This document shows positions 1 to 12,050 of a DNA stretch of 12,050 nucleotides, piece by piece. Below the pieces are notes generated by a model. That model worked only from the letters and a program-made list of their open reading frames with translations, had not been told where the DNA came from and ran no database searches. The translations under genes were made by a program, and so were the position numbers. Position 1 is the first letter of the stretch; the number at the start of each line of letters is the position of its first letter. Source of the DNA: Treponema sp. (lineage in GTDB: Bacteria; Spirochaetota; Spirochaetia; Treponematales; Breznakiellaceae); the NCBI GenBank assembly GCA_031279925.1, contig JAITHQ010000170.1:1-12050 (forward strand), read 5' to 3'.

Positions 1-1860
1 GTAACGGCAGGGACCACCACGATTGAACTTGGCAGCGCATTGCCCCAGATAGCCAAAAGCGTAACCATAGAGGGGAACGGCGTTACCCTTACGCGCAGCG
101 CCGCCTGGACTGAAATCAGCGATACTTCCCAACTGCTGCGCATTTCCAACAACAGTAGCTCCTATATAACGGTAAACATCAGCCGGGTACATTTTAAGAA
201 CGGCAGGGCAACGGCTTACGGCGCAGCTATCAGGGATTACGGCCAAAATGTACAACTGAAATTGGAATCGTGCATATTCAGCGGGAACCAGACCGGCGGT
301 ATGGGCGGAGCGATTTACAGCTCTAGCAACATAACCGTTATGGGCTGCACGTTCTACCAAAATATTTCCAGCGGCGAAGGCACGGCAATTTACTCCCCCA
401 AAGAATACACTGTTCGTCTTATGGGGAACCTGTTCTACGGTAACCAAATACGGGTGGTTCATAATCTTTTTTATGAACAATTTTTACCTGGTAATATCTC
501 ATGTGTACGCTCCTATGGCTACAATGTGGTCGATGTTGCCTTTGGAGTCGATGCTGCAGGCTGGAACGCCGCAACCGGGGACACAACCGCAAACAACATG
601 CTGGTTTCGCCGGTATCATTCAGATTGCTTAGTGGCAGCGAAGCAGCCAATGTTATTACTACTTTGCCCGAAGGCTACCCCCAGACGGATTTCTATGGCA
701 ATGCCATAGCCGATGGAGCGGCAGCGGGCGCGGTACAAAGCACGGCAAGCGGCAGCGGCTATGTTCTGCAGCTTTCGGTAAACAACAGTTCCCTGGGCAG
801 TGTAAGCGCCTCGCCCGCGCCAAACGCGGACGGCTTTGTATCCACCGGTACGGTTAGCCTTACGGCAAGCCCTAAGCCAGGATGCGAATTGGTAAACTGG
901 CTGGTAAACGGCGTTAACGCCGGTTCGGCAAACCCCTTAAGCCACAGCATAACTAACCATACCAGCGTACAGGCGGTATTTGCCAGAATAGTAACGGTAA
1001 CGGCCTTTACCGATACCGCAGACAGCGCCACCACGCCGGGAACCCTGCGCTACGCCCTGACCAATGCCCAGGAAGGGGACATAATTCGCTTTACCGGGGT
1101 AACGCCCTTGACTAGCGCCATTGGATTAACCAGCGCCTTGCCCCCGGTAAGCAAAAGCGTAACCATACAGGGCAACGGCGTTACCCTAACGCGCAGCGCC
1201 GCCTGGACCGCAACCAGCGATACTTCCCAACTGCTGTACATTTACAACGACAGTTCCGCCATAACGGTAAACATAAGCCAGGTATACTTTAAGGGCGGCA
1301 GGGCAACGGATTACGGCGCTGCCATCAGGAATAACGGCGAAACGGTAAACCTGGAATCGTGCATATTCAGCATGAACCAGACCAGTAGAAGCGGTGCGGG
1401 CGGCGGCGTTATCTACAGTTACAGGGGGCCCATGACCGTTAAGGGCTGCACGTTCTACCAAAATATTTCAGGCGGCTATGGCGGCGCAATTTACTTCTCC
1501 AGCGGCGGCTACGCTGACATTACGCTGACCCTTACGGGGAACCTGTTCTATGGCAACACGGCGGCCAATGGCGGCCCGGTGGTGTACTCTTATTACGAAT
1601 ACGAAGTAACATCCAACGGCTACAATGTGGCCGATGTTGCCCTGGGAACCGGTACGGATCAAAGCGGCTGGGATGCCGCAACCGGGGACAACACCTTTAC
1701 CGGACTAAGCATTACCGGCGCCCCGCTTACCGCAACAACCTTTGCGCCGGTAACGGGCCTAAATTCGGTAATACTATCGGCCCCGGAAGATTTCCCCGCT
1801 GCGGACTTTAACGGCGCAGCCAGAACCTGGCCCGGCGCTCCAGGCGCAGTAAAACAGTAA
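1..1860 (+). CDS. Repetitive beta-helix surface/secreted protein (5' end outside window)
   Basis: The frame is open from base 1 to the TAA at 1858-1860, giving 619 visible residues; the true start lies upstream, and the TTG at 40 is only the first start-like codon. Two homologous modules are seen: the first from base 1 to about 750, the second from about 990 to 1857. Each has the pattern KSVTI-GNGVTLTRSAAW, then short beta-helix rungs (GAAI, ESCIFS-NQT, GCTFYQNIS, GNLFYGN), and closes with a DF-G...GA-GAV stretch. Between them, about 760-995, lies a segment typical of divergent InlB B-repeats (GSVSASP, VSLTASP, W-VNG, VQAVFA). The second module opens with GTLRYAL..A-EGD-I-F, typical of right-handed beta-helix or polymorphic outer-membrane-type proteins. 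The role is probably surface exposure or adhesion, inferred only from the fold; no signal peptide or anchor is visible because the N-terminus is missing. It ends without a membrane segment. Confidence 0.75.
   Translation, partial: VTAGTTTIELGSALPQIAKSVTIEGNGVTLTRSAAWTEISDTSQLLRISNNSSSYITVNISRVHFKNGRATAYGAAIRDYGQNVQLKLESCIFSGNQTGGMGGAIYSSSNITVMGCTFYQNISSGEGTAIYSPKEYTVRLMGNLFYGNQIRVVHNLFYEQFLPGNISCVRSYGYNVVDVAFGVDAAGWNAATGDTTANNMLVSPVSFRLLSGSEAANVITTLPEGYPQTDFYGNAIADGAAAGAVQSTASGSGYVLQLSVNNSSLGSVSASPAPNADGFVSTGTVSLTASPKPGCELVNWLVNGVNAGSANPLSHSITNHTSVQAVFARIVTVTAFTDTADSATTPGTLRYALTNAQEGDIIRFTGVTPLTSAIGLTSALPPVSKSVTIQGNGVTLTRSAAWTATSDTSQLLYIYNDSSAITVNISQVYFKGGRATDYGAAIRNNGETVNLESCIFSMNQTSRSGAGGGVIYSYRGPMTVKGCTFYQNISGGYGGAIYFSSGGYADITLTLTGNLFYGNTAANGGPVVYSYYEYEVTSNGYNVADVALGTGTDQSGWDAATGDNTFTGLSITGAPLTATTFAPVTGLNSVILSAPEDFPAADFNGAARTWPGAPGAVKQ
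61..1857 (+). repeat. Large intragenic tandem duplication (offset about 1098 bp)
   Basis: The stretch beginning GTAACCATA at 61 recurs at 1159, an offset of 1098 bp (366 codons), and similarity continues through the rest of both modules with small in-frame indels. Near-identical DNA blocks include the bases coding for GNGVTLTRSAAW and for ESCIF, GCTFYQNIS and GNLFYGN. The middle of the first module (about 443-520) is much less similar to its counterpart. The repeat is at both DNA and protein level, so it is a relatively recent or homogenised duplication. More copies may lie upstream of base 1. Confidence 0.8.
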
Positions 1861-1878
1861 ACTAAAAAACCTAAAGGC

Positions 1879-1899
1879 AAACAGTGCCTGGCACTATTT
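1879..1899. repeat. Short palindrome, copy 1 (AAACAGTGCC-T-GGCACTATTT)
   Basis: An inverted repeat of 10-bp arms around a single T, with one mismatch in the right arm (A where copy 2 has G). It lies 18 bp after the stop codon of the beta-helix gene and immediately before the terminator. A second, perfect copy lies after the terminator. The role is unknown; it resembles dispersed REP-like palindromes, but only two copies are visible here. Confidence 0.6.
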
Positions 1900-1901
1900 T
1901 G

Positions 1902-1933
1902 GGACTTGCCGCAAAGCGGCAAGTCCTTTTTTT
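1902..1933 (+). terminator. Intrinsic terminator of the beta-helix gene
   Basis: A perfect 11-bp stem (GGACTTGCCGC at 1902-1912 with GCGGCAAGTCC at 1916-1926) closes an AAA loop and is followed at once by seven T (1927-1933). It lies 41 bp after the stop codon. The opposite strand has no T-run after the stem, so it acts on plus-strand transcription only. Confidence 0.95.
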
Positions 1934-1943
1934 CAAAAACAGA

Positions 1944-1966
1944 AAAACAGTGCCTGGCACTGTTTT
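1944..1966. repeat. Short palindrome, copy 2 (perfect 11-bp arms)
   Basis: Arms AAAACAGTGCC (1944-1954) and GGCACTGTTTT (1956-1966) are exact reverse complements around T1955. Apart from one base it matches the copy at 1879-1899, so the terminator is bracketed by two direct copies of one palindrome. On the plus strand it ends in only four T, so it is at most a weak back-up terminator. Confidence 0.65.
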
Positions 1967-2017
1967 AGTATCCAAAAAACGGCGTGTATGTAATTGAGCC
2001 GTCCGGGAAACGTTTAA

Positions 2018-2028
2018 GAGCCTGTTCA
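2018..2028 (+). repeat. Solitary left half-site of the palindromic element (GAGCCTGTTCA)
   Basis: These 11 bases equal the left terminus of the elements at 2081 and 2495. No matching right end follows before the next element begins, so this is either a remnant of an older, decayed copy or a chance match. It is preceded by TAA. Confidence 0.45.
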
Positions 2029-2059
2029 CAATAATGGCAGCCGCAGAGACGGGGGATTT

Positions 2060-2080
2060 TAAGGGGGCAAAGCCCCCTTA
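2060..2080. other. G/C-rich hairpin next to the long element
   Basis: TAAGGGGGC (2060-2068) pairs perfectly with GCCCCCTTA (2072-2080) around an AAA loop. No T-run follows on either strand, so it is not a standard intrinsic terminator. Its last three bases (TTA, 2078-2080) are also the left flanking duplication of the 144-bp element, suggesting that the element inserted at the edge of this hairpin. Its function is unknown. Confidence 0.6.
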
Positions 2081-2224
2081 GAGCCTGTTCAAAATCTGGA
2101 ATTTTGGCGTTGCAAACGCCAAAATTCTACCTTGCAGGCTCCATCGAACCGAAGGTTCGCAGAGCCCGAAAATCGGGTTTTTTGTGGTCTATTGACCGCA
2201 AAAAACCATAATTTGAACAGGCTC
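2081..2224 (+). repeat. Long (144-bp) palindromic/MITE-like element flanked by TTA
   Basis: The ends are a perfect 13-bp inverted repeat: GAGCCTGTTCAAA at 2081-2093 and its complement at 2212-2224. TTA flanks both sides (2078-2080 and 2225-2227), as expected of a 3-bp target duplication. Inside are three hairpins: a 13-bp stem with a GCA loop (2099-2127), a 6-bp stem with a GAA loop (2145-2159), and a 12-bp stem with loop TCTATTGA (2176-2207). Internal GGCTC (2137-2141) and GAGCC (2162-2166) suggest two fused units of 61 and 63 bp separated by 20 bp. No coding capacity is apparent beyond short chance frames. It is related to the copies at 2495-2560 and 8257-8319. Confidence 0.85.
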
Positions 2225-2227
2225 TTA

Positions 2228-2313
2228 CCGGCATGGTACGGCGGTATCATCCCTGAAACCCCGCGCTTTCCCGCCTTCACGCTATCATACCATCCGGTTT
2301 ACGCGGAGGGGAT
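2228..2313 (+). promoter_or_regulatory. Leader of dut with ribosome binding site; no clear promoter
   Basis: GGAGGGG at 2305-2311 lies just before the ATG at 2314 and is a strong but closely spaced Shine-Dalgarno sequence. A TATCAT at 2283-2288 could be a -10 box, but no matching -35 stands at the right distance. The element end contributes TTGAAC (2213-2218), with no good -10 downstream. Promoter placement is therefore unresolved. Confidence 0.4.
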
Positions 2314-2850
2314 ATGAAAGGGAAAGGCGTGTCCGGCCAGGGGCCTGTAATGGTAAAAATAGCAAGAGCCGATCCCCGCATCCCCCTTCCCCGCTACGGG
2401 AGCGGGGGGGCGGCGGGTATGGATATATGCGCCTTTCTTGCGGAAGACGCCGCCGTTCCCCTCCTGGGCAGGGTTAAAATCCCTGCGGGGCTTAGAGCCT
2501 GTTCAAAATCGGGATTTTTGTGGTCTATTGGCCGCAAAAATCCACAATTTGAACAGGCTCTTAGGCTTGAAATCCCGCCGGGCTTTGAGGCGCAGATACG
2601 CCCCCGCTCAGGACCGGCAATCCGCTCCGGCTTTACCGCGCCCAATTCCCCCGGCGCCATAGACGCGGACTTTCTGGGTGAAGCGGAAATCATTTTGGTT
2701 AATCTGAAAACGGAACCGGCCAGCATTAAAAACGGCGACCGGATTGCCCAAATGGTAATCTCTCCGGTTATGCAGGCTTTTATTAAAGAAACCGCTTCTC
2801 TTTCTGAAACCAAACGGGAAAGCGGCGGTTTTGGATCTACAGGAATGTAA
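2314..2850 (+). CDS. dut: Deoxyuridine 5'-triphosphate nucleotidohydrolase carrying an in-frame 23-residue repeat insert
   Basis: This trimeric dUTPase hydrolyses dUTP to dUMP and pyrophosphate, keeping uracil out of DNA and supplying dUMP for thymidylate synthesis. All five family motifs are visible: I, AAGMDICA (33-40); II, RPRSG (96-100); III, PGAIDADFLGE with the catalytic Asp117; IV, RIAQMV (143-148); V, R168 with GGFGSTG (171-177). The protein has 178 residues against about 150 for the family. The excess is residues 61-83, encoded by the palindromic element at 2495-2560 plus a 3-bp duplication. Without it the sequence reads IPAGL-RLEIPPGFEA, matching the usual TGL..I..... segment ahead of motif II. 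Start 2314 is chosen for its GGAGG site; ATG 2350 (MVKIARADP) is a plausible alternative nearer the usual N-terminus. The stop abuts the lptF start. It is likely still functional, but activity is not shown by sequence. Confidence 0.93.
   Translation: MKGKGVSGQGPVMVKIARADPRIPLPRYGSGGAAGMDICAFLAEDAAVPLLGRVKIPAGLRACSKSGFLWSIGRKNPQFEQALRLEIPPGFEAQIRPRSGPAIRSGFTAPNSPGAIDADFLGEAEIILVNLKTEPASIKNGDRIAQMVISPVMQAFIKETASLSETKRESGGFGSTGM
2495..2560 (+). repeat. 66-bp palindromic element inserted in frame within dut
   Basis: Perfect 13-bp terminal inverted repeats (2495-2507 and 2548-2560) enclose a 12-bp hairpin (2512-2523 with 2532-2543, one T:G wobble, loop TCTATTGG). TTA occurs on both sides (2492-2494 and 2561-2563), so the net insertion is 69 bp, or 23 codons. 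It is read as RACSKSGFLWSIGRKNPQFEQAL. Two of the three forward frames and one reverse frame across the element lack stops, so it can be tolerated in several reading frames. From AATCGGG to the right end it matches the copy at 8266-8319 at 53 of 54 positions. Confidence 0.92.
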
Positions 2851-4202
2851 ATGGTAATGGAAAACGCCTCAGCTGTAAGCGGGAATGTTGGCAGCCGTTC
2901 TTCGGGCGGGCTGCTTTTTTCAGGATTGGACCGGGAGGGGGAGAGTGAACGCGCGCTCTCTTTTACCATTTACCGCTACATCCTTACCGAAACTTTTTTT
3001 TCGTTTCTTATTGCATTCCTTTTTTTCTTTTTTATTTTCTTTGTGAATCAGCTCCTCCTTATGGCCCAGGATATACTTACCAAACATGTGCCGTTTGGAC
3101 AGGTCGCTCTTCTTGTACTGTTTTCCCTGCCTTCAGTTATCGCAATGTCGGCCCCGTTTGCCTCCCTGGTGGGTACCCTTATGACTGTGGGGCGGCTCAC
3201 CAGCGATAATGAAATCCTGGTGCTGCTTTCGTCGGGGCTTTCGTATAGAAACGTGTTTATTCCCGCGATAACGGTAGGGATAATTATCTCGATGCTTTCA
3301 TTTTTTGCCAATGACGTGCTGCTTCCCGCAGGTACCGTGCAGTTTGCCCGGCTTTATCGAAGAATATTAACATCCACTCCGGCACTGGAACTGGAAGCCA
3401 ATTCGGTTAAAAAATTCAAGGATACGGTGATAGTTACCGGAAACGTTTCAGGCAACTCCATTGATAATGTGCTGATACTGGACAGGACCAGCGATGGCGA
3501 GCGCAGGGTTATTATGGCGAATAATGCGGAACTCAAGGACGCCGGCAAGAACGGCCTTAGCCTTGACCTTGAACGGGCATTTATTCAATCGTCAAAAGAA
3601 ATTATCCGCGAAGATTATGACTACGCTTCCGCCAGTTTTCTCCGCTACTGGGTACCCCAGGAGGACCTTATTCAGGCAATGTCTTCCATTAGTCCAAGGG
3701 AAATGAGTTCCCGCGATGTATTCCGCGAAATACAAAAAAAGACTGTGGACCTTAACGCGAGGCTTAATGAACGGAAAAACAAGCTTGCCACCCAGGCGCT
3801 TGCCCTGGAAGAAAGCCTGCGGCAGGGCCCTTTCGGGGAAACATGGAACCGGAGGGCAAATCATCTTGCTGGTTTCCAGCGGGAACTGCAGACGCTGGCG
3901 GGACTTAAAAGGGATCGCAGCCTGTCCATTTATTGGCTTGAATTCTACAAAAAATTTTCCATACCCTTTGGCGCGTTTTCGTTTATATTCCTCGCGGTTT
4001 CGCTGGGTTTGATGGCAAAAAAAAGCGGCCAAACGGTTGGTTTTATTTTTGGTCTTTTGATAGCGGTGGTATATTGGGCGCTGATGCTGGGAGGACAAAC
4101 TATGGGGATTCGCCTTAACACTTCCCCCTTCTGGTCCATGTGGCTGCCCAATTTATTGGCTTTGTCGGCAGGGCTGGTACTGGCTGTTGTAAAGGTGCGG
4201 AA

Positions 4203-4206
<4 letters not shown>
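2851..4206 (+). CDS. lptF: LptF/LptG-family permease, first of pair (LptF-like)
   Basis: An inner-membrane subunit of the LptB2FG-type ABC transporter that extracts lipopolysaccharide or a comparable glycolipid from the membrane and passes it to the periplasmic bridge. The layout is that of the YjgP/YjgQ family: three N-terminal membrane segments (about 47-71, 86-113, 134-158), a large periplasmic beta-rich domain (about 165-290), a charged, probably coiled-coil stretch (about 288-360), and three C-terminal membrane segments (about 370-389, 395-418, 428-447). Length is 451 residues, longer than the usual 360 or so because of the coiled-coil stretch and a 37-residue N-terminal extension rich in Ser, Gly and Glu. 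ATG 2851 follows the dut stop directly, with AGGA at 2841-2844; ATG 2857 is also possible. The LptF versus LptG assignment rests only on being first and paired. No ATPase gene (lptB) is seen here. Confidence 0.88.
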
Positions 4207-8246: not shown

Positions 8247-8261
8247 GGCTCTAAAAGAGCC
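8247..8261. other. Small hairpin at the left edge of the third element copy
   Basis: GGCTCT (8247-8252) pairs with AGAGCC (8256-8261) around AAA. The right arm belongs to the element terminus; the left arm repeats the element's right end, since AGGCTCTAA occurs at 8246-8254 and again at 8314-8322. This could be a trace of a second, mostly deleted copy abutting this one. No T-run follows, so it is not a terminator. Confidence 0.45.
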
Positions 8262-8319
8262 CGGGAATCGGGATTTTTGCGGTCTATTGGCCGCAAAAAT
8301 CCACAATTTGAACAGGCTC
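8257..8319 (+). repeat. 63-bp copy of the palindromic element between two genes
   Basis: The right end is intact (TTTGAACAGGCTC, 8307-8319) and the central hairpin is perfectly paired (12-bp stem at 8271-8282 with 8291-8302, loop TCTATTGG). The left end is the variant GAGCCCGGGAATCGGG, 3 bp shorter than the dut copy and like the internal junction of the long element (GAGCCCGAAAATCGGG at 2162). The flanks are AAA and TAA, so no clean target duplication remains. It lies in the leader of the DUF4132-type gene, 14 bp before its Shine-Dalgarno, and may fold in the mRNA. Confidence 0.85.
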
Positions 8320-8333
8320 TAAGAGGCTTAATT

Positions 8334-8340
8334 AAGGAGG
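8334..8340 (+). promoter_or_regulatory. Strong Shine-Dalgarno (AAGGAGG) of the DUF4132-type gene
   Basis: AAGGAGG lies 5 nt before ATG 8346 and fixes the start of the last gene. The 125-bp gap before this gene has no terminator and no recognisable promoter, so transcription from the upstream operon probably reads through. Confidence 0.85.
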
Positions 8341-8345
8341 CTGTA

Positions 8346-11300
8346 ATGGATAATGACGCGGTAGTTGAAAAACTCAACAAGGAAAAGGGCCGGAATTGGG
8401 ATTTAGCCAAGGCGATAATTGATTTCAAAAATTGCGGTTATACGACAAGGGAAAGATACCTGGGCATCCTTTACGAACTGCTGCTGGAAGGCGATCCAAA
8501 AACCTTGTCCGAAGTTTTTAACAACGGCCCCAGGGACCTTTTTGCCGGGGTTTACGGTAAAGAAACCGCCGCCTTTGTGGGCAAGGCTGTTTCCCGGCTC
8601 CATAGCAGCGTTCATTCCCCCAGCGCCTGCCGCCGCAGTTTCCGCACCAAAGAAGTTGCCCCTTACCTTGACCGCCTTGCGCAAATTCTGGCTGATCTTC
8701 TCTTTTTCCCCTGGGAACATTTTGATATGCTCCACGATTTGACCAGCCCGCGCAAGGCGGACGATGACGACAACGAAAAGGCCGGCGCCCGGCGCTTCCC
8801 CCAATGGCTGTATGGTGATTTTATCGCGGTCCGTATTGACGAGGGCGATGCGGATATTATCAAGGCCATTAAGGATATTTGCCTGGGGGACAACAATACC
8901 AAACTGTTAAGCCACGCCATTATCAACGGTATTGTAAAAAGCGAAAACAAAGAGCTGTATAAACTGTTAGGCGATATGCTGCTTGCGGCCCGCCTCCAGG
9001 AAGGGCTGCGCCAGTCGATTCTGGAAAACGCCGACAACGGCAGGGTCGAGGCGTTTATATATTTGATGAAGATCGTTATCGACAACGATCTTATCCGCTA
9101 TTCCTCCGCGTTACGCGCACTTGACGTATGGCTTGGCCTGGGCGAAAGCTATGACGACAGGCGGACTGCGGAAAAACTGCTCAAGCTCTGTTACGCCTGT
9201 CTTACCGGTAAAAAAGCGCTTAACGCGGGCCTTGAAAGCAAGGATGTTACCGGGATTTACGCCGACCTCTGGGCCCTTTCGGTGCGGGAAATGAACGACG
9301 TGCTGGGGCCCATAGAAAAACTGATGCGAGGCGAAAAATACCAAAAGCTGGTTGGCCTTTACTTTGCGGGGCAGCTTGAAAACAGCGGCCTCCAGTTTGC
9401 CGTCACTTCAAAAATAATCGCGGGCTTTACGCCGGAGGAGGCCGATCTTGATATCCTGGGCCTGACAATCGAGAACTATCCGGTTAGCGGTTCCTATCCC
9501 TGGCGCAAGGAGGATTTTGCGGGGGAATGCCGCAAGAACCGGTTCCTGGCGGACAAAAAAATCCGGGACGAACAATTTGAAAGTCTTTTGGGAATACTCC
9601 CCCTGGTTCCGCAGAAAGGCTATGCTGCCGGGGGCAAGCCCTTTCCCTGGCGGCTTATTTCCCTGGAGCCAAAAGATATTGCTATCCGGCTGCTTAACAT
9701 CGCGGGTTATGATTTTGAATCCGCCAAAACAGACCGGCTCATGGGGATCATGCCCCTGGCGGACAGTTACAGCCGGGTTACTTTTATCAAGGTTTTTCTG
9801 CAAAAACCCGCAGGCCAAAAAGAGCGGGACTTTTTGTTTGCCTCGTTAAACGACAAGAGCATGAGCGTCCGTTCCCAGGCTCTGGAAAATGTGCTGGCCT
9901 TAGCTGAAACAAAGGAAGGCAAAGAAAGCGCCGCGCCGCTGGATGAGGCCGAAGAAAAACTCGTTATTGATCTGCTTGCCCTGAAAACCGGGGACCTGCG
10001 CCAGAACAGCCTCAAAATTCTGCTGTCCCTGCCGGGGGACCGTCCGCTGGAAGCGGCAAAGATTCTGCTGGCTGACAAAAACGAAAACAAGCGGCTCGGC
10101 GGCCTTGACATGATCGCCCAACTGGTAAACCGCGGCAAAATAGACCGGCGGGAAGCGGCGGACTACATCGCCCTTATGCCCAGGGCCGGCGGCAGGGAAC
10201 AGGTGCTTATCAAAGCCATCACCGCCGGGGCGGTCAAATACACCAAATCCAACGGTTTTGGCCGGTATAACCCGAATTATTGGCCTGTTTTCCCCGCGCC
10301 TGAAAGCGATCCCCGTCACAACCTGGAATCGATTTTCGGCCTTTCCCCGGAGCGGGCCAAAAAAATTTTTTCTTCCCTCTGCGAAACGATTAGGGCACAC
10401 AAGGACTATTCCTACCAAATAGAAAACTACGACGGCGTGCAGGATGTTGTCCTGGGCGGCCTTAACTGGCCCAGAGCCAGGGCGGAACTGCATAACGATA
10501 AAAGCAAAACCATGCTTGAATGTTTTGTACTGCAAGAGGTATGGCGGGGCTGGATCAAGAAAACAGCCCTTACCTTTAGCGAAGTTTTTTATTTTATGTT
10601 TCTTGATGAAGTGAAACGGTATAACGACAGTTATGAGCCTGATTACCAGGACTGGGCAAATGCGTTAGTCGAAACTTTTTTCCATGCCGGGGACATAGAC
10701 GCGCTTATCCGCTGGATGTCCAAACAGGAATACGGCGCCCTTGCCCTGCACATCATCCTTATACTCTGGACGGAGTTTTCCGAAGAAGAACGCTTTACCG
10801 CGCTTGCCGGGGCTTTGGCGGAGCTCTTCAAAAAAATCCCCAAAGAAGACTGGAAAAAAAGCATCGAAAACGAAAACAGTTACCGCTACAACCGGGAAGA
10901 CCCGGAGACTTTTGCCGATACCAAAGAAACGCTCTTTATTGTCAGACGCTTGAAGGAAGCGGCGGTCAATGATGAACGCTTCAAAAAATACACCGCCATT
11001 TGTTTTGAACTGGGGCGGCTTTCGGGAATGTTTTATCTGGAGCTTGAGCCGCAGGACATTGCCCGGGGAATAGCCCTGGGCATTCTGGAAAAGGACACCT
11101 TGTACCGGACCATGTTCCTCACCAATCCCCAGAACCTGGGCGGCTACGCGGGAAAGATCCGCTACGAGGGCTATAAAAAGGACGTGGAAAAATACCCCCT
11201 GCTCAAAACCGTTGCCGATGAAGCCGCGGTCCGGGTGATTGAGATTGAGCTTGACCGGGGGGACAGCGAAACTGAGGTGAGCAAGCTGGCCCTGGCGATC

Positions 11301-12050
11301 TCCTGGCACGAGGGCGCGGAAACCCTGGTGAAAATTCTTACGGCCCTGGGGGACGAAACCTTTGTGCGGGGTTATATCTACAGCAATACCGCTGCCAAGA
11401 AAGCGGTGCTTTCCAGCCTGCTCAAGGCGTCTCATCCGGGCGCGGCGGACAGCGTAGAAACCCTGCGCGCCGCTCTGTCGGGCAAAAACATCAGCGAGAA
11501 ACGGCTTATCGAGGCGGCCATGTACGCCCCGGCCTGGCTGGACCTGGCGGGGGATTACCTGGGCTGGCCGGGATTGAAAAGCGCGGCCTGGTACTTCCAC
11601 GCCCACATCAACGAAACTTTTTCCGCGGAAAAGGAAACCGAGGCCGCCCGGTATTCACCCATCAGCCCGGAGGAATTCAACGACGGCGCCTTTGACATCA
11701 CCTGGTTCTGGGACGCCTACAACACCCTGGGCGCGGAACGCTTTGATCTGGTTTACATCTGCGCAAAGTATTTGACCGAGGGAAGCAACCACCGCCGGGC
11801 GCAGCTTTTCGCGGACGCGGTTCTGGGCCGCCTGGAAAAAGACGCGCTGGCACAGGAGATCAGGGAAAAGCGGAACAAAGATAAACTGTTGAGCTACTCG
11901 TTAATACCACTGGCCCCGGAAGCGGCGGCCCAAGACGCGGTGATGAGCGAGGCCCTGAAACGCTACGAGTTTATCCAGGGCTTTTTGCAAGAGAGCAAAA
12001 GTTTCGGGGCCCAGCGCCGGGAGAGCGAGGCTAAAGCCTGCGCCATTGCC
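8346..12050 (+). CDS. Giant DUF5724/DUF4132-family (MolR/YehI-like) protein, C-terminus cut by window end
   Basis: The frame is open from ATG 8346 to the last base, giving 1235 codons without a stop; the 3' end is outside the window. There is no signal peptide or membrane segment, so it is probably cytoplasmic. Most of it is alpha-helical, HEAT/ARM-like. The stretch at about 318-370 (IYADLWALSVREMNDV, then VGLYFAGQLENSGLQ) and the segment from Met1059 (MYAPAWLDLAGDYLGWPGLKSA, WYFHAHINE) match my memory of DUF5724/DUF4132 proteins such as E. coli MolR and YehI. The visible end, ESKSFGAQRRESE (1216-1228), is the conserved stretch just ahead of the DUF4132 domain, which should follow downstream. 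The family's biochemical function is not established; the old 'molybdate regulator' name for MolR should not be transferred. No WGR domain is seen at the N-terminus. The long minus-strand frames opposite it are shadows. Confidence 0.85.
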   Translation, partial: MDNDAVVEKLNKEKGRNWDLAKAIIDFKNCGYTTRERYLGILYELLLEGDPKTLSEVFNNGPRDLFAGVYGKETAAFVGKAVSRLHSSVHSPSACRRSFRTKEVAPYLDRLAQILADLLFFPWEHFDMLHDLTSPRKADDDDNEKAGARRFPQWLYGDFIAVRIDEGDADIIKAIKDICLGDNNTKLLSHAIINGIVKSENKELYKLLGDMLLAARLQEGLRQSILENADNGRVEAFIYLMKIVIDNDLIRYSSALRALDVWLGLGESYDDRRTAEKLLKLCYACLTGKKALNAGLESKDVTGIYADLWALSVREMNDVLGPIEKLMRGEKYQKLVGLYFAGQLENSGLQFAVTSKIIAGFTPEEADLDILGLTIENYPVSGSYPWRKEDFAGECRKNRFLADKKIRDEQFESLLGILPLVPQKGYAAGGKPFPWRLISLEPKDIAIRLLNIAGYDFESAKTDRLMGIMPLADSYSRVTFIKVFLQKPAGQKERDFLFASLNDKSMSVRSQALENVLALAETKEGKESAAPLDEAEEKLVIDLLALKTGDLRQNSLKILLSLPGDRPLEAAKILLADKNENKRLGGLDMIAQLVNRGKIDRREAADYIALMPRAGGREQVLIKAITAGAVKYTKSNGFGRYNPNYWPVFPAPESDPRHNLESIFGLSPERAKKIFSSLCETIRAHKDYSYQIENYDGVQDVVLGGLNWPRARAELHNDKSKTMLECFVLQEVWRGWIKKTALTFSEVFYFMFLDEVKRYNDSYEPDYQDWANALVETFFHAGDIDALIRWMSKQEYGALALHIILILWTEFSEEERFTALAGALAELFKKIPKEDWKKSIENENSYRYNREDPETFADTKETLFIVRRLKEAAVNDERFKKYTAICFELGRLSGMFYLELEPQDIARGIALGILEKDTLYRTMFLTNPQNLGGYAGKIRYEGYKKDVEKYPLLKTVADEAAVRVIEIELDRGDSETEVSKLALAISWHEGAETLVKILTALGDETFVRGYIYSNTAAKKAVLSSLLKASHPGAADSVETLRAALSGKNISEKRLIEAAMYAPAWLDLAGDYLGWPGLKSAAWYFHAHINETFSAEKETEAARYSPISPEEFNDGAFDITWFWDAYNTLGAERFDLVYICAKYLTEGSNHRRAQLFADAVLGRLEKDALAQEIREKRNKDKLLSYSLIPLAPEAAAQDAVMSEALKRYEFIQGFLQESKSFGAQRRESEAKACAIA

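What the first reader, a model, noticed from the sequence alone, without database searches (positions are those of the whole stretch)
2492..2563. A palindromic mobile-type repeat is translated in frame inside dUTPase
The sequence shows a 66-bp element with 13-bp inverted ends, flanked by TTA on both sides, splitting the conserved segment IPAGL | RLEIPPG of dut. The net gain is 69 bp, so the frame is kept and 23 residues are added while all five catalytic motifs survive. Known precedent: Rickettsia palindromic elements inserted in frame in essential genes. I infer an analogous, independent family in this organism, making new protein segments. The insert replaces part of what should be a core beta strand, which makes tolerance surprising.
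Basis: partly seen in the sequence, partly recalled or inferred. Interest (0 to 1): 0.85.

Follow-up and report, generated by a model that had tools for sequence, protein, structure and literature searches.

The report
Mobile palindrome inside decaying dUTPase gene
A 66-base mobile palindrome sits in frame inside the dUTPase gene of a Treponema-like bacterium, adding 23 amino acids, but the gene around it is losing residues that its relatives keep, so it looks more like a gene on its way out than an enzyme that accepted a new part.

Summary
A 66-bp inverted-repeat element (2495-2560) with 13-bp perfect ends and TTA on both sides lies in frame in dut and adds 23 residues. None of the 119 homologues examined (the best listed of 7,999) has it. 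It is a short form of a MITE family: 129-bp full form, TTA/TAA target duplication, 40 more places in three related genomes, and ends like those of an IS5-type insertion sequence in another relative. In-frame copies also occur in a PfkB kinase gene and a hypothetical-protein gene, each with empty-site relatives.

The claim that an essential enzyme tolerates the insert is not supported. The window dut has changed 7 of 56 near-invariant sites (119 others: mean 0.5, maximum 3), and its tree branch is about 20 times that of its insert-free sister. Neighbouring lptF, lptG and tgt are normal. Five relatives lack dut at this locus. Best reading: a frame-neutral MITE entered a dispensable dut that is now decaying, its frame kept open by short time or by coupling to lptF (inferred). 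It resembles Rickettsia palindromic elements in part, but only 1 of 40 copies was shown in frame in a conserved gene, and its open frames match chance.

The parts
2314..2850 (+). dut, trimeric-type dUTPase ORF of 178 aa with the 23-residue insertion; several near-invariant residues changed
   Evidence: ORF list; PF00692 70.9 bits, best stretch 83-177 only, against 110.7 bits over 23-154 for insert-free P0002
2492..2494 (.). left copy of the target duplication, TTA
   Evidence: sequence; 20 of 26 two-ended copies in three other genomes have identical TTA/TTA or TAA/TAA flanks
2495..2560 (.). 66-bp MITE, short form, 13-bp perfect inverted ends, read as RACSKSGFLWSIGRKNPQFEQAL
   Evidence: a 66-bp copy also at L167 in G013
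2561..2563 (.). right copy of the target duplication, TTA
   Evidence: sequence
2081..2224 (.). 144-bp copy of the same family upstream of dut, flanked by TTA/TTA
2018..2032 (.). solitary left end (GAGCCTGTTCACAAT), probably of a truncated copy
8257..8319 (.). 63-bp right half of the family element, upstream of a long ORF
2851..4206 (+). lptF-type permease; its first ATG abuts the dut stop codon (possible translational coupling, inferred)
   Evidence: PF03739 on the window's own protein P0139

Best explanation
A non-autonomous IS5-type element (MITE) that inserts at TNA and duplicates 3 bp landed in the dut gene of a Treponema-like bacterium (anatomy shown; movement itself inferred). The 66-bp form plus the 3-bp duplication is a multiple of three, and it is stop-free in the frame it landed in, so the frame survived (shown). 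dut appears dispensable in this clade, since relatives lack it at the same locus. In this lineage dut is no longer under normal purifying selection and has probably lost or is losing dUTPase activity (inferred from the substitution pattern). The frame may still be open because little time has passed, or because lptF translation is coupled to it (inferred). The 23 residues are thus a passenger in a decaying gene, not an accepted new part of a working enzyme.
For: Mobility: full form 129 bp; 20 of 26 two-ended copies in G013, G030 and G003 have identical TTA/TTA or TAA/TAA flanks; an 895-bp element in G061 has ends matching the MITE at 14 and 15 of 16 positions and IS5-family transposase fragments. 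Empty sites: dut 119 of 119; PfkB 9 of 9 aligned relatives; P0125, whose 277-aa orthologue at G013:C224 matches residues 1-159 and 202-280 in one frame. Decay: 7 of 56 sites conserved at >=95% changed, against mean 0.49 and maximum 3 in 119 others; near-invariant sites changed dut 8/55, lptF 5/178, lptG 3/136, tgt 1/177, Fisher p=7.7e-5; relative rate 17:2 against P0002, p=7e-4; end branch 0.31 against 0.014; mean dut-on-lptF residual -0.095 against -0.022 to +0.019 in 24 others; share of changes at conserved sites 0.24 against at most 0.11 in 280 control pairs and 0.39 under neutrality. Dispensability: pnp-dut-lptF in all 19 dut-bearing operons examined, but no dut in L217, L238, L245, L237 (contig 3,239,340 bp) and L239, the 5 of 15 dut-less stretches where both pnp and lptF were in view. 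A dut profile matched 0 of 23 genomes. PF00692 gave 4 of 15 weak matches, one over the cut-off; all four ORFs look like peptide deformylases by motif.
Against: There is no stop or frameshift, though random substitution of this size leaves the ORF stop-free in 25-49% of simulations (indels not simulated). Changes are somewhat fewer at conserved sites than neutrality predicts (7 of 56 against 22 of 89, p=0.09), so some constraint may remain. Residues such as D37, RPRSG and DRIAQ are kept. E. coli Dut is recalled to differ at T115 and R121, so not every change need be fatal. Whether decay came before or after insertion is unknown. L233 has as many changes in dut (8/58), though its other genes are divergent too. 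Single pairs range from z -1.0 to -5.0, and three lie at -1.3 or weaker. The genomes without dut are mostly fragmented MAG-like assemblies. One search had no positive control.
Confidence: 0.7

Rival explanations
1. The enzyme still works. The 23 residues form an extra loop between motifs 1 and 2 that the trimer tolerates, as proposed for Rickettsia palindromic elements, and dut is merely evolving faster.
For: Open frame; kept motif cores; changes at conserved sites below the neutral share, p=0.09; Pfam still scores 70.9 bits.
Against: Gene-specific loss of near-invariant sites and a roughly 20-fold longer branch; the share of changes at conserved sites exceeds all 280 control pairs.
Confidence: 0.15
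2. Compensatory or new-function evolution: the substitutions are adaptive answers to the insert, so the protein has a changed but selected function.
For: Many changes in a gene that stays open.
Against: The changes lie on both sides of the insert and include R to C, P to L, L to P and E to G, which suggests random replacement. Clustering in the structure could not be tested.
Confidence: 0.08
3. Assembly chimera at a repeat: two unrelated halves were joined through the element.
For: Several family copies lie at contig ends, so the repeat breaks assemblies.
Against: The two sides are contiguous pieces of the same gene with no residue missing and a matching TTA duplication, and both halves carry window-specific changes.
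Confidence: 0.03
4. A palindrome arising by chance or local duplication, not a mobile element.
For: None found.
Against: Family copies with target duplications at unrelated places.
Confidence: 0.01

Closest known systems
Rickettsia palindromic elements (RPEs; Ogata et al. 2000 and 2002, not read; described in the review PMC10969869, passages seen)
   Same: Short palindromic repeats, some in frame inside unrelated protein genes, adding a similar peptide each time.
   Different: The review says nearly half of the RPEs lie in ORFs; here 1 of 40 copies was shown in frame in a conserved gene. A 3-bp TNA duplication and IS5-type kin are visible. The best-studied host gene here is decaying.
Bacterial MITEs, e.g. 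QMITE1 and QMITE2 of Coxiella (PMC5896051, passages seen)
   Same: Non-autonomous elements with terminal inverted repeats and target duplications; a few in-frame insertions in ORFs are reported.
   Different: Longer (150-400 bp), other host, other duplications (2-3 or 7-11 nt of variable sequence); QMITE1 often overlaps ORFs.
Enterobacterial RU elements in genes (PMC2759123, abstract seen)
   Same: MITE-like repeats with open reading frames translated in annotated gene loci.
   Different: Other host and lengths (103-168 bp); the abstract gives no empty-site or rate test.
Spirochaetes without dUTPase ('Life without dUTPase', PMC5122711, passages seen)
   Same: Counts 19 of 57 Spirochaetes species without dut, in line with dut being dispensable.
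   Different: Here a possible intermediate stage, an inserted and drifting dut, is seen.

Membership tests
[quoted passage not shown]
   66 bp with 13-bp perfect ends; family 63-144 bp
[quoted passage not shown]
   TTA/TTA in dut; 20 of 26 two-ended copies elsewhere have identical TTA or TAA flanks, 6 do not
[quoted passage not shown]
   895-bp element in L208 (G061) has ends matching at 14 and 15 of 16 positions and IS5-family transposase frames, but the frames are broken and its flanks differ (TAA/TTA). Of 30 loci held from 36 PF01609 matches in six genomes no other convincing end pair was seen
[quoted passage not shown]
   40 places in three genomes; empty sites for dut, PfkB and P0125
IS5-family derived | TNA target and IS5-type transposase | tested here: inconclusive
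   TTA/TAA flanks; kin IS fragments match PF13340 and PF01609 over their cut-offs and NF033580 at 69 and 47 bits, below its cut-off of 110; that TNA is typical of an IS5 subgroup is recalled
Rickettsia palindromic element (RPE) | sequence homology to an RPE family | not tested
   no RPE sequence was fetched
Rickettsia palindromic element (RPE) | in-frame insertion inside protein genes | tested here: met
   dut, PfkB (up to the contig end), P0125
Rickettsia palindromic element (RPE) | a large share of copies inside ORFs (nearly half, per the review) | tested here: inconclusive
   1 of 40 copies shown in frame inside a conserved gene (PfkB, L176); flanking genes were not annotated for all copies and several copies lie at contig ends
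Rickettsia palindromic element (RPE) | host protein remains functional | tested here: inconclusive
   dut shows signs of decay; no assay possible
trimeric dUTPase | PF00692 profile and intact motifs | tested here: inconclusive
   PF00692 70.9 bits over the cut-off of 22, but near-invariant residues are changed

The most novel reading that the evidence does not exclude
Treponema-type bacteria carry a second, independent family of protein-coding palindromes. The commonest form (129 bp) and the 63-, 66- and 144-bp forms are multiples of three and with the 3-bp duplication keep the frame, so the element seeds peptide segments into working proteins, among them dUTPase, a PfkB kinase and signal peptides. 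Against it: 8 of 26 two-ended copies have other lengths (130 bp four times, 128 bp twice, 127 and 95 bp once each), and open frames are no more than in shuffles.
Probability: 0.12. Interest if true: 0.7.

Novelty: new member of a known kind. Interest (0 to 1): 0.38.

Why it matters
It shows why an open frame through an inserted palindrome is weak evidence that the protein accepts it: frame-neutral length, an element open in two or three of six frames, and a short time since insertion are enough. It also gives a case in which decay of the host gene is measured against insert-free relatives and operon neighbours, a test that could be turned on the long-standing claim that Rickettsia-type palindromes make new protein segments. 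Searches of the held library for termite Treponema with miniature inverted-repeat elements (0 papers), Treponema with MITEs and palindromic (2 papers) and Spirochaet- with miniature inverted-repeat elements and insertion sequence (5 papers) showed no paper on this family by title; those papers were not read.

Tried and rejected
Rejected: chance palindrome; replacement of dut residues (155+23=178); the insert as an old trait of the lineage (0 of 119); misassembly (see rivals). Selection for coding ability of the element: fractions of shuffles with at least as many open frames 0.26-0.73. Loss of ung as the reason that dut is dispensable: uneven, 3 of 5 dut-less and 8 of 11 dut-bearing genomes have a UDG match over the cut-off. 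Parent IS by PF01609: of 30 loci held (36 matches) only L208 has a convincing end pair; L193 has one end. Viral contigs: 0 matches. Structure prediction: switched off. One search printed nothing because the script read too few files; repeated. One search failed part-way with some wrong ORFs; replaced.

Full report
Observation. The window holds dut at 2314-2850 (+). Between IPAGL and RLEIPPG lies GAGCCTGTTCAAA...TTTGAACAGGCTC (2495-2560, 66 bp), flanked by TTA at 2492-2494 and 2561-2563. The net gain is 69 bp, or 23 residues. The strand folds to -44.9 kcal/mol, z -10.7. A 144-bp copy lies at 2081-2224 with TTA on both sides, and a 63-bp half copy at 8257-8319.

Family. No genome is held for the window. 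A pattern of both ends in the genome collection gave 18 stretches from several phyla, four of them in one Treponema MAG; the viral collection gave 0. Among 147 genomes related to that MAG, 22 match the 72-bp query at E<=0.01, most strongly G013, G030 and G003 (at most six first-look candidates per genome were scored). The core pattern with up to 3 mismatches finds 40 distinct places in these three (24, 13, 3), none in the six other genomes searched, and none for the reversed control (places merged). The full form is 129 bp; the dut form lacks an inner stretch, and the join can be read at a shared AAAATC. Of 26 copies with both ends found, 20 have identical TTA or TAA flanks and 18 have a length divisible by three (sixteen of 129, one of 144, one of 66); the rest are 130 (four), 128 (two), 127 and 95 bp (my count). 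Two 63-bp half elements carry their own TAA/TAA flanks. The 66-bp copy in G013 (L167) has unlike flanks, TGA/TCA. An 895-bp element in G061 has ends of the same kind, flanks TAA/TTA, and broken IS5-family transposase frames. I infer that an IS5-type transposase moves the family; this is not shown.

Copies in genes. A search with the translated element (45 residues of the PfkB ORF) against 5.8 billion proteins gave 17 proteins at E<=0.1, the PfkB protein itself included. Nearly all carry it at or near an end; P0125 is the clear inner case. P0126 and P0128 carry it inside what looks like a signal peptide (by eye). The PfkB gene of G030 (L176) carries the 129-bp form in frame with TAA/TAA flanks. 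The nine relatives aligned have the GAGD motif directly after this place, but the contig ends after NTVG, so the rest is not seen. P0125 has an 82-91% identical orthologue in G013 matching residues 1-159 and 202-280 in one frame without the insert; other genomes hold many more distant relatives of it. Of the 40 copies, only PfkB was shown to be in frame inside a conserved gene. L151 has a 444-aa ORF through it that was not tested for homologues, and in L185 an ORF that looks like a phage packaging protein by eye runs into the element and stops. Open frames of the element are 2 (129 bp) and 3 (66 bp) of six with TTA flanks, 1 and 2 with TAA, no more than in shuffles. So a third to a half of insertions of the 66-bp form would leave a frame open, and no special coding design is needed.

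State of dut. The 119 homologues listed beside the window's own protein, out of 7,999 matches, lack the insert. The window protein differs at 7 of 56 sites conserved at >=95% (E29G, T58A, L110P, T115A, Y120F, R121L, G169E); the others have a mean of 0.49 and a maximum of 3. In 19 relatives' operons, near-invariant sites changed in the window are dut 8/55 (rank 1 of 20), lptF 5/178 (9th), lptG 3/136 (9th) and tgt 1/177 (19th) (Fisher 7.7e-5). L233 has 8/58 in dut but is also high in the other three genes. Relative rate with outgroups P0004 and P0005: 17 changes against 2 in P0002 (p=7e-4); with P0009 and P0012, 15 against 0; against P0003 15:3 and against P0004 14:4; three control pairs 4:2, 2:2, 2:4. 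In a tree of 26 proteins, insert left out, the window has an end branch of 0.31 and its sister P0002 0.014 (support 97/93). Of window-P0002 differences 24% fall at conserved sites, against 2% on average and 11% at most in 280 control pairs, with 39% under neutrality. The nearest LptF is 97% identical (P0140).

Dispensability. pnp-dut-lptF-lptG is the order in 19 of 19 dut-bearing stretches, with tgt next in 18 (in L228 it lies further off); these were chosen because dut and tgt lay near each other. I also fetched 15 stretches around tgt in genomes without a dut match. In five of them both pnp and lptF are in view, and dut is absent: L217 (G013), L238 (G042) and L245 (G048) have pnp next to lptF; L237 (G027, contig of 3.24 Mb) and L239 (G014) have 1.3-1.4 kb of other DNA between. 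The other ten could not be judged: tgt alone in eight, lptF without pnp in two. G013 carries this same element family. A dut profile found nothing in 23 genomes (20 of the 23 without a match, plus G003, G013 and G030, no positive control). PF00692, which rings in 11 of 14 control genomes, gave 4 matches in 15 of them, one over the cut-off (G030, 26.8 bits); by motif all four are peptide deformylases. A published survey counts 19 of 57 Spirochaetes species without dut (PMC5122711, passages).

Conclusion. The insertion and its frame are real and the element is a MITE. The dut gene around it is drifting. Coupling is possible because the dut stop (2848-2850) abuts the first lptF ATG (2851), but it is not shown. 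Whether insertion started the decay or hit an already useless gene cannot be told. The parallel with Rickettsia palindromic elements holds in part for mechanism (in-frame palindromes in unrelated genes), not for functional tolerance.

Noticed in passing
window 1879-1965: A different inverted repeat, AAACAGTGCCTGGCAC..., arms 22 nt at 91%, downstream of the first ORF.
   Followed up: no
window 1-1860: The first ORF holds two diverged copies of a unit of about 1.1 kb (blocks 79-94% identical).
   Followed up: no
window 1860-2314: Upstream of dut is an element-rich spacer and not pnp, unlike the 19 dut-bearing stretches examined in relatives, so the locus looks rearranged here.
   Followed up: partly
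L217, L238, L245, L237, L239: dut is missing between pnp and lptF in five relatives; in L237 and L239 about 1.3-1.4 kb of other DNA lies there.
   Followed up: partly
L001-L018: The same 13-bp ends, often with TNA flanks, bound 54-79 bp stretches in unrelated groups (Lysobacteraceae, Chitinimonas, Azomonas and others), suggesting a widespread IS group.
   Followed up: partly
P0126, P0128: Element-derived residues sit inside apparent signal peptides of a TPR protein and an NlpC/P60 protein (by eye).
   Followed up: partly
copies in G013, G030 and G003: The commonest length (129 bp) and the 63-, 66- and 144-bp forms are multiples of three; 130 bp (four copies) and 128 bp (two) also recur.
   Followed up: partly
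window 8257-12050: A very long ORF runs to the window's end; the mechanical TTG start at 8277 lies inside the half element, while an ATG at 8346 with AAGGAGG before it lies just after.
   Followed up: no
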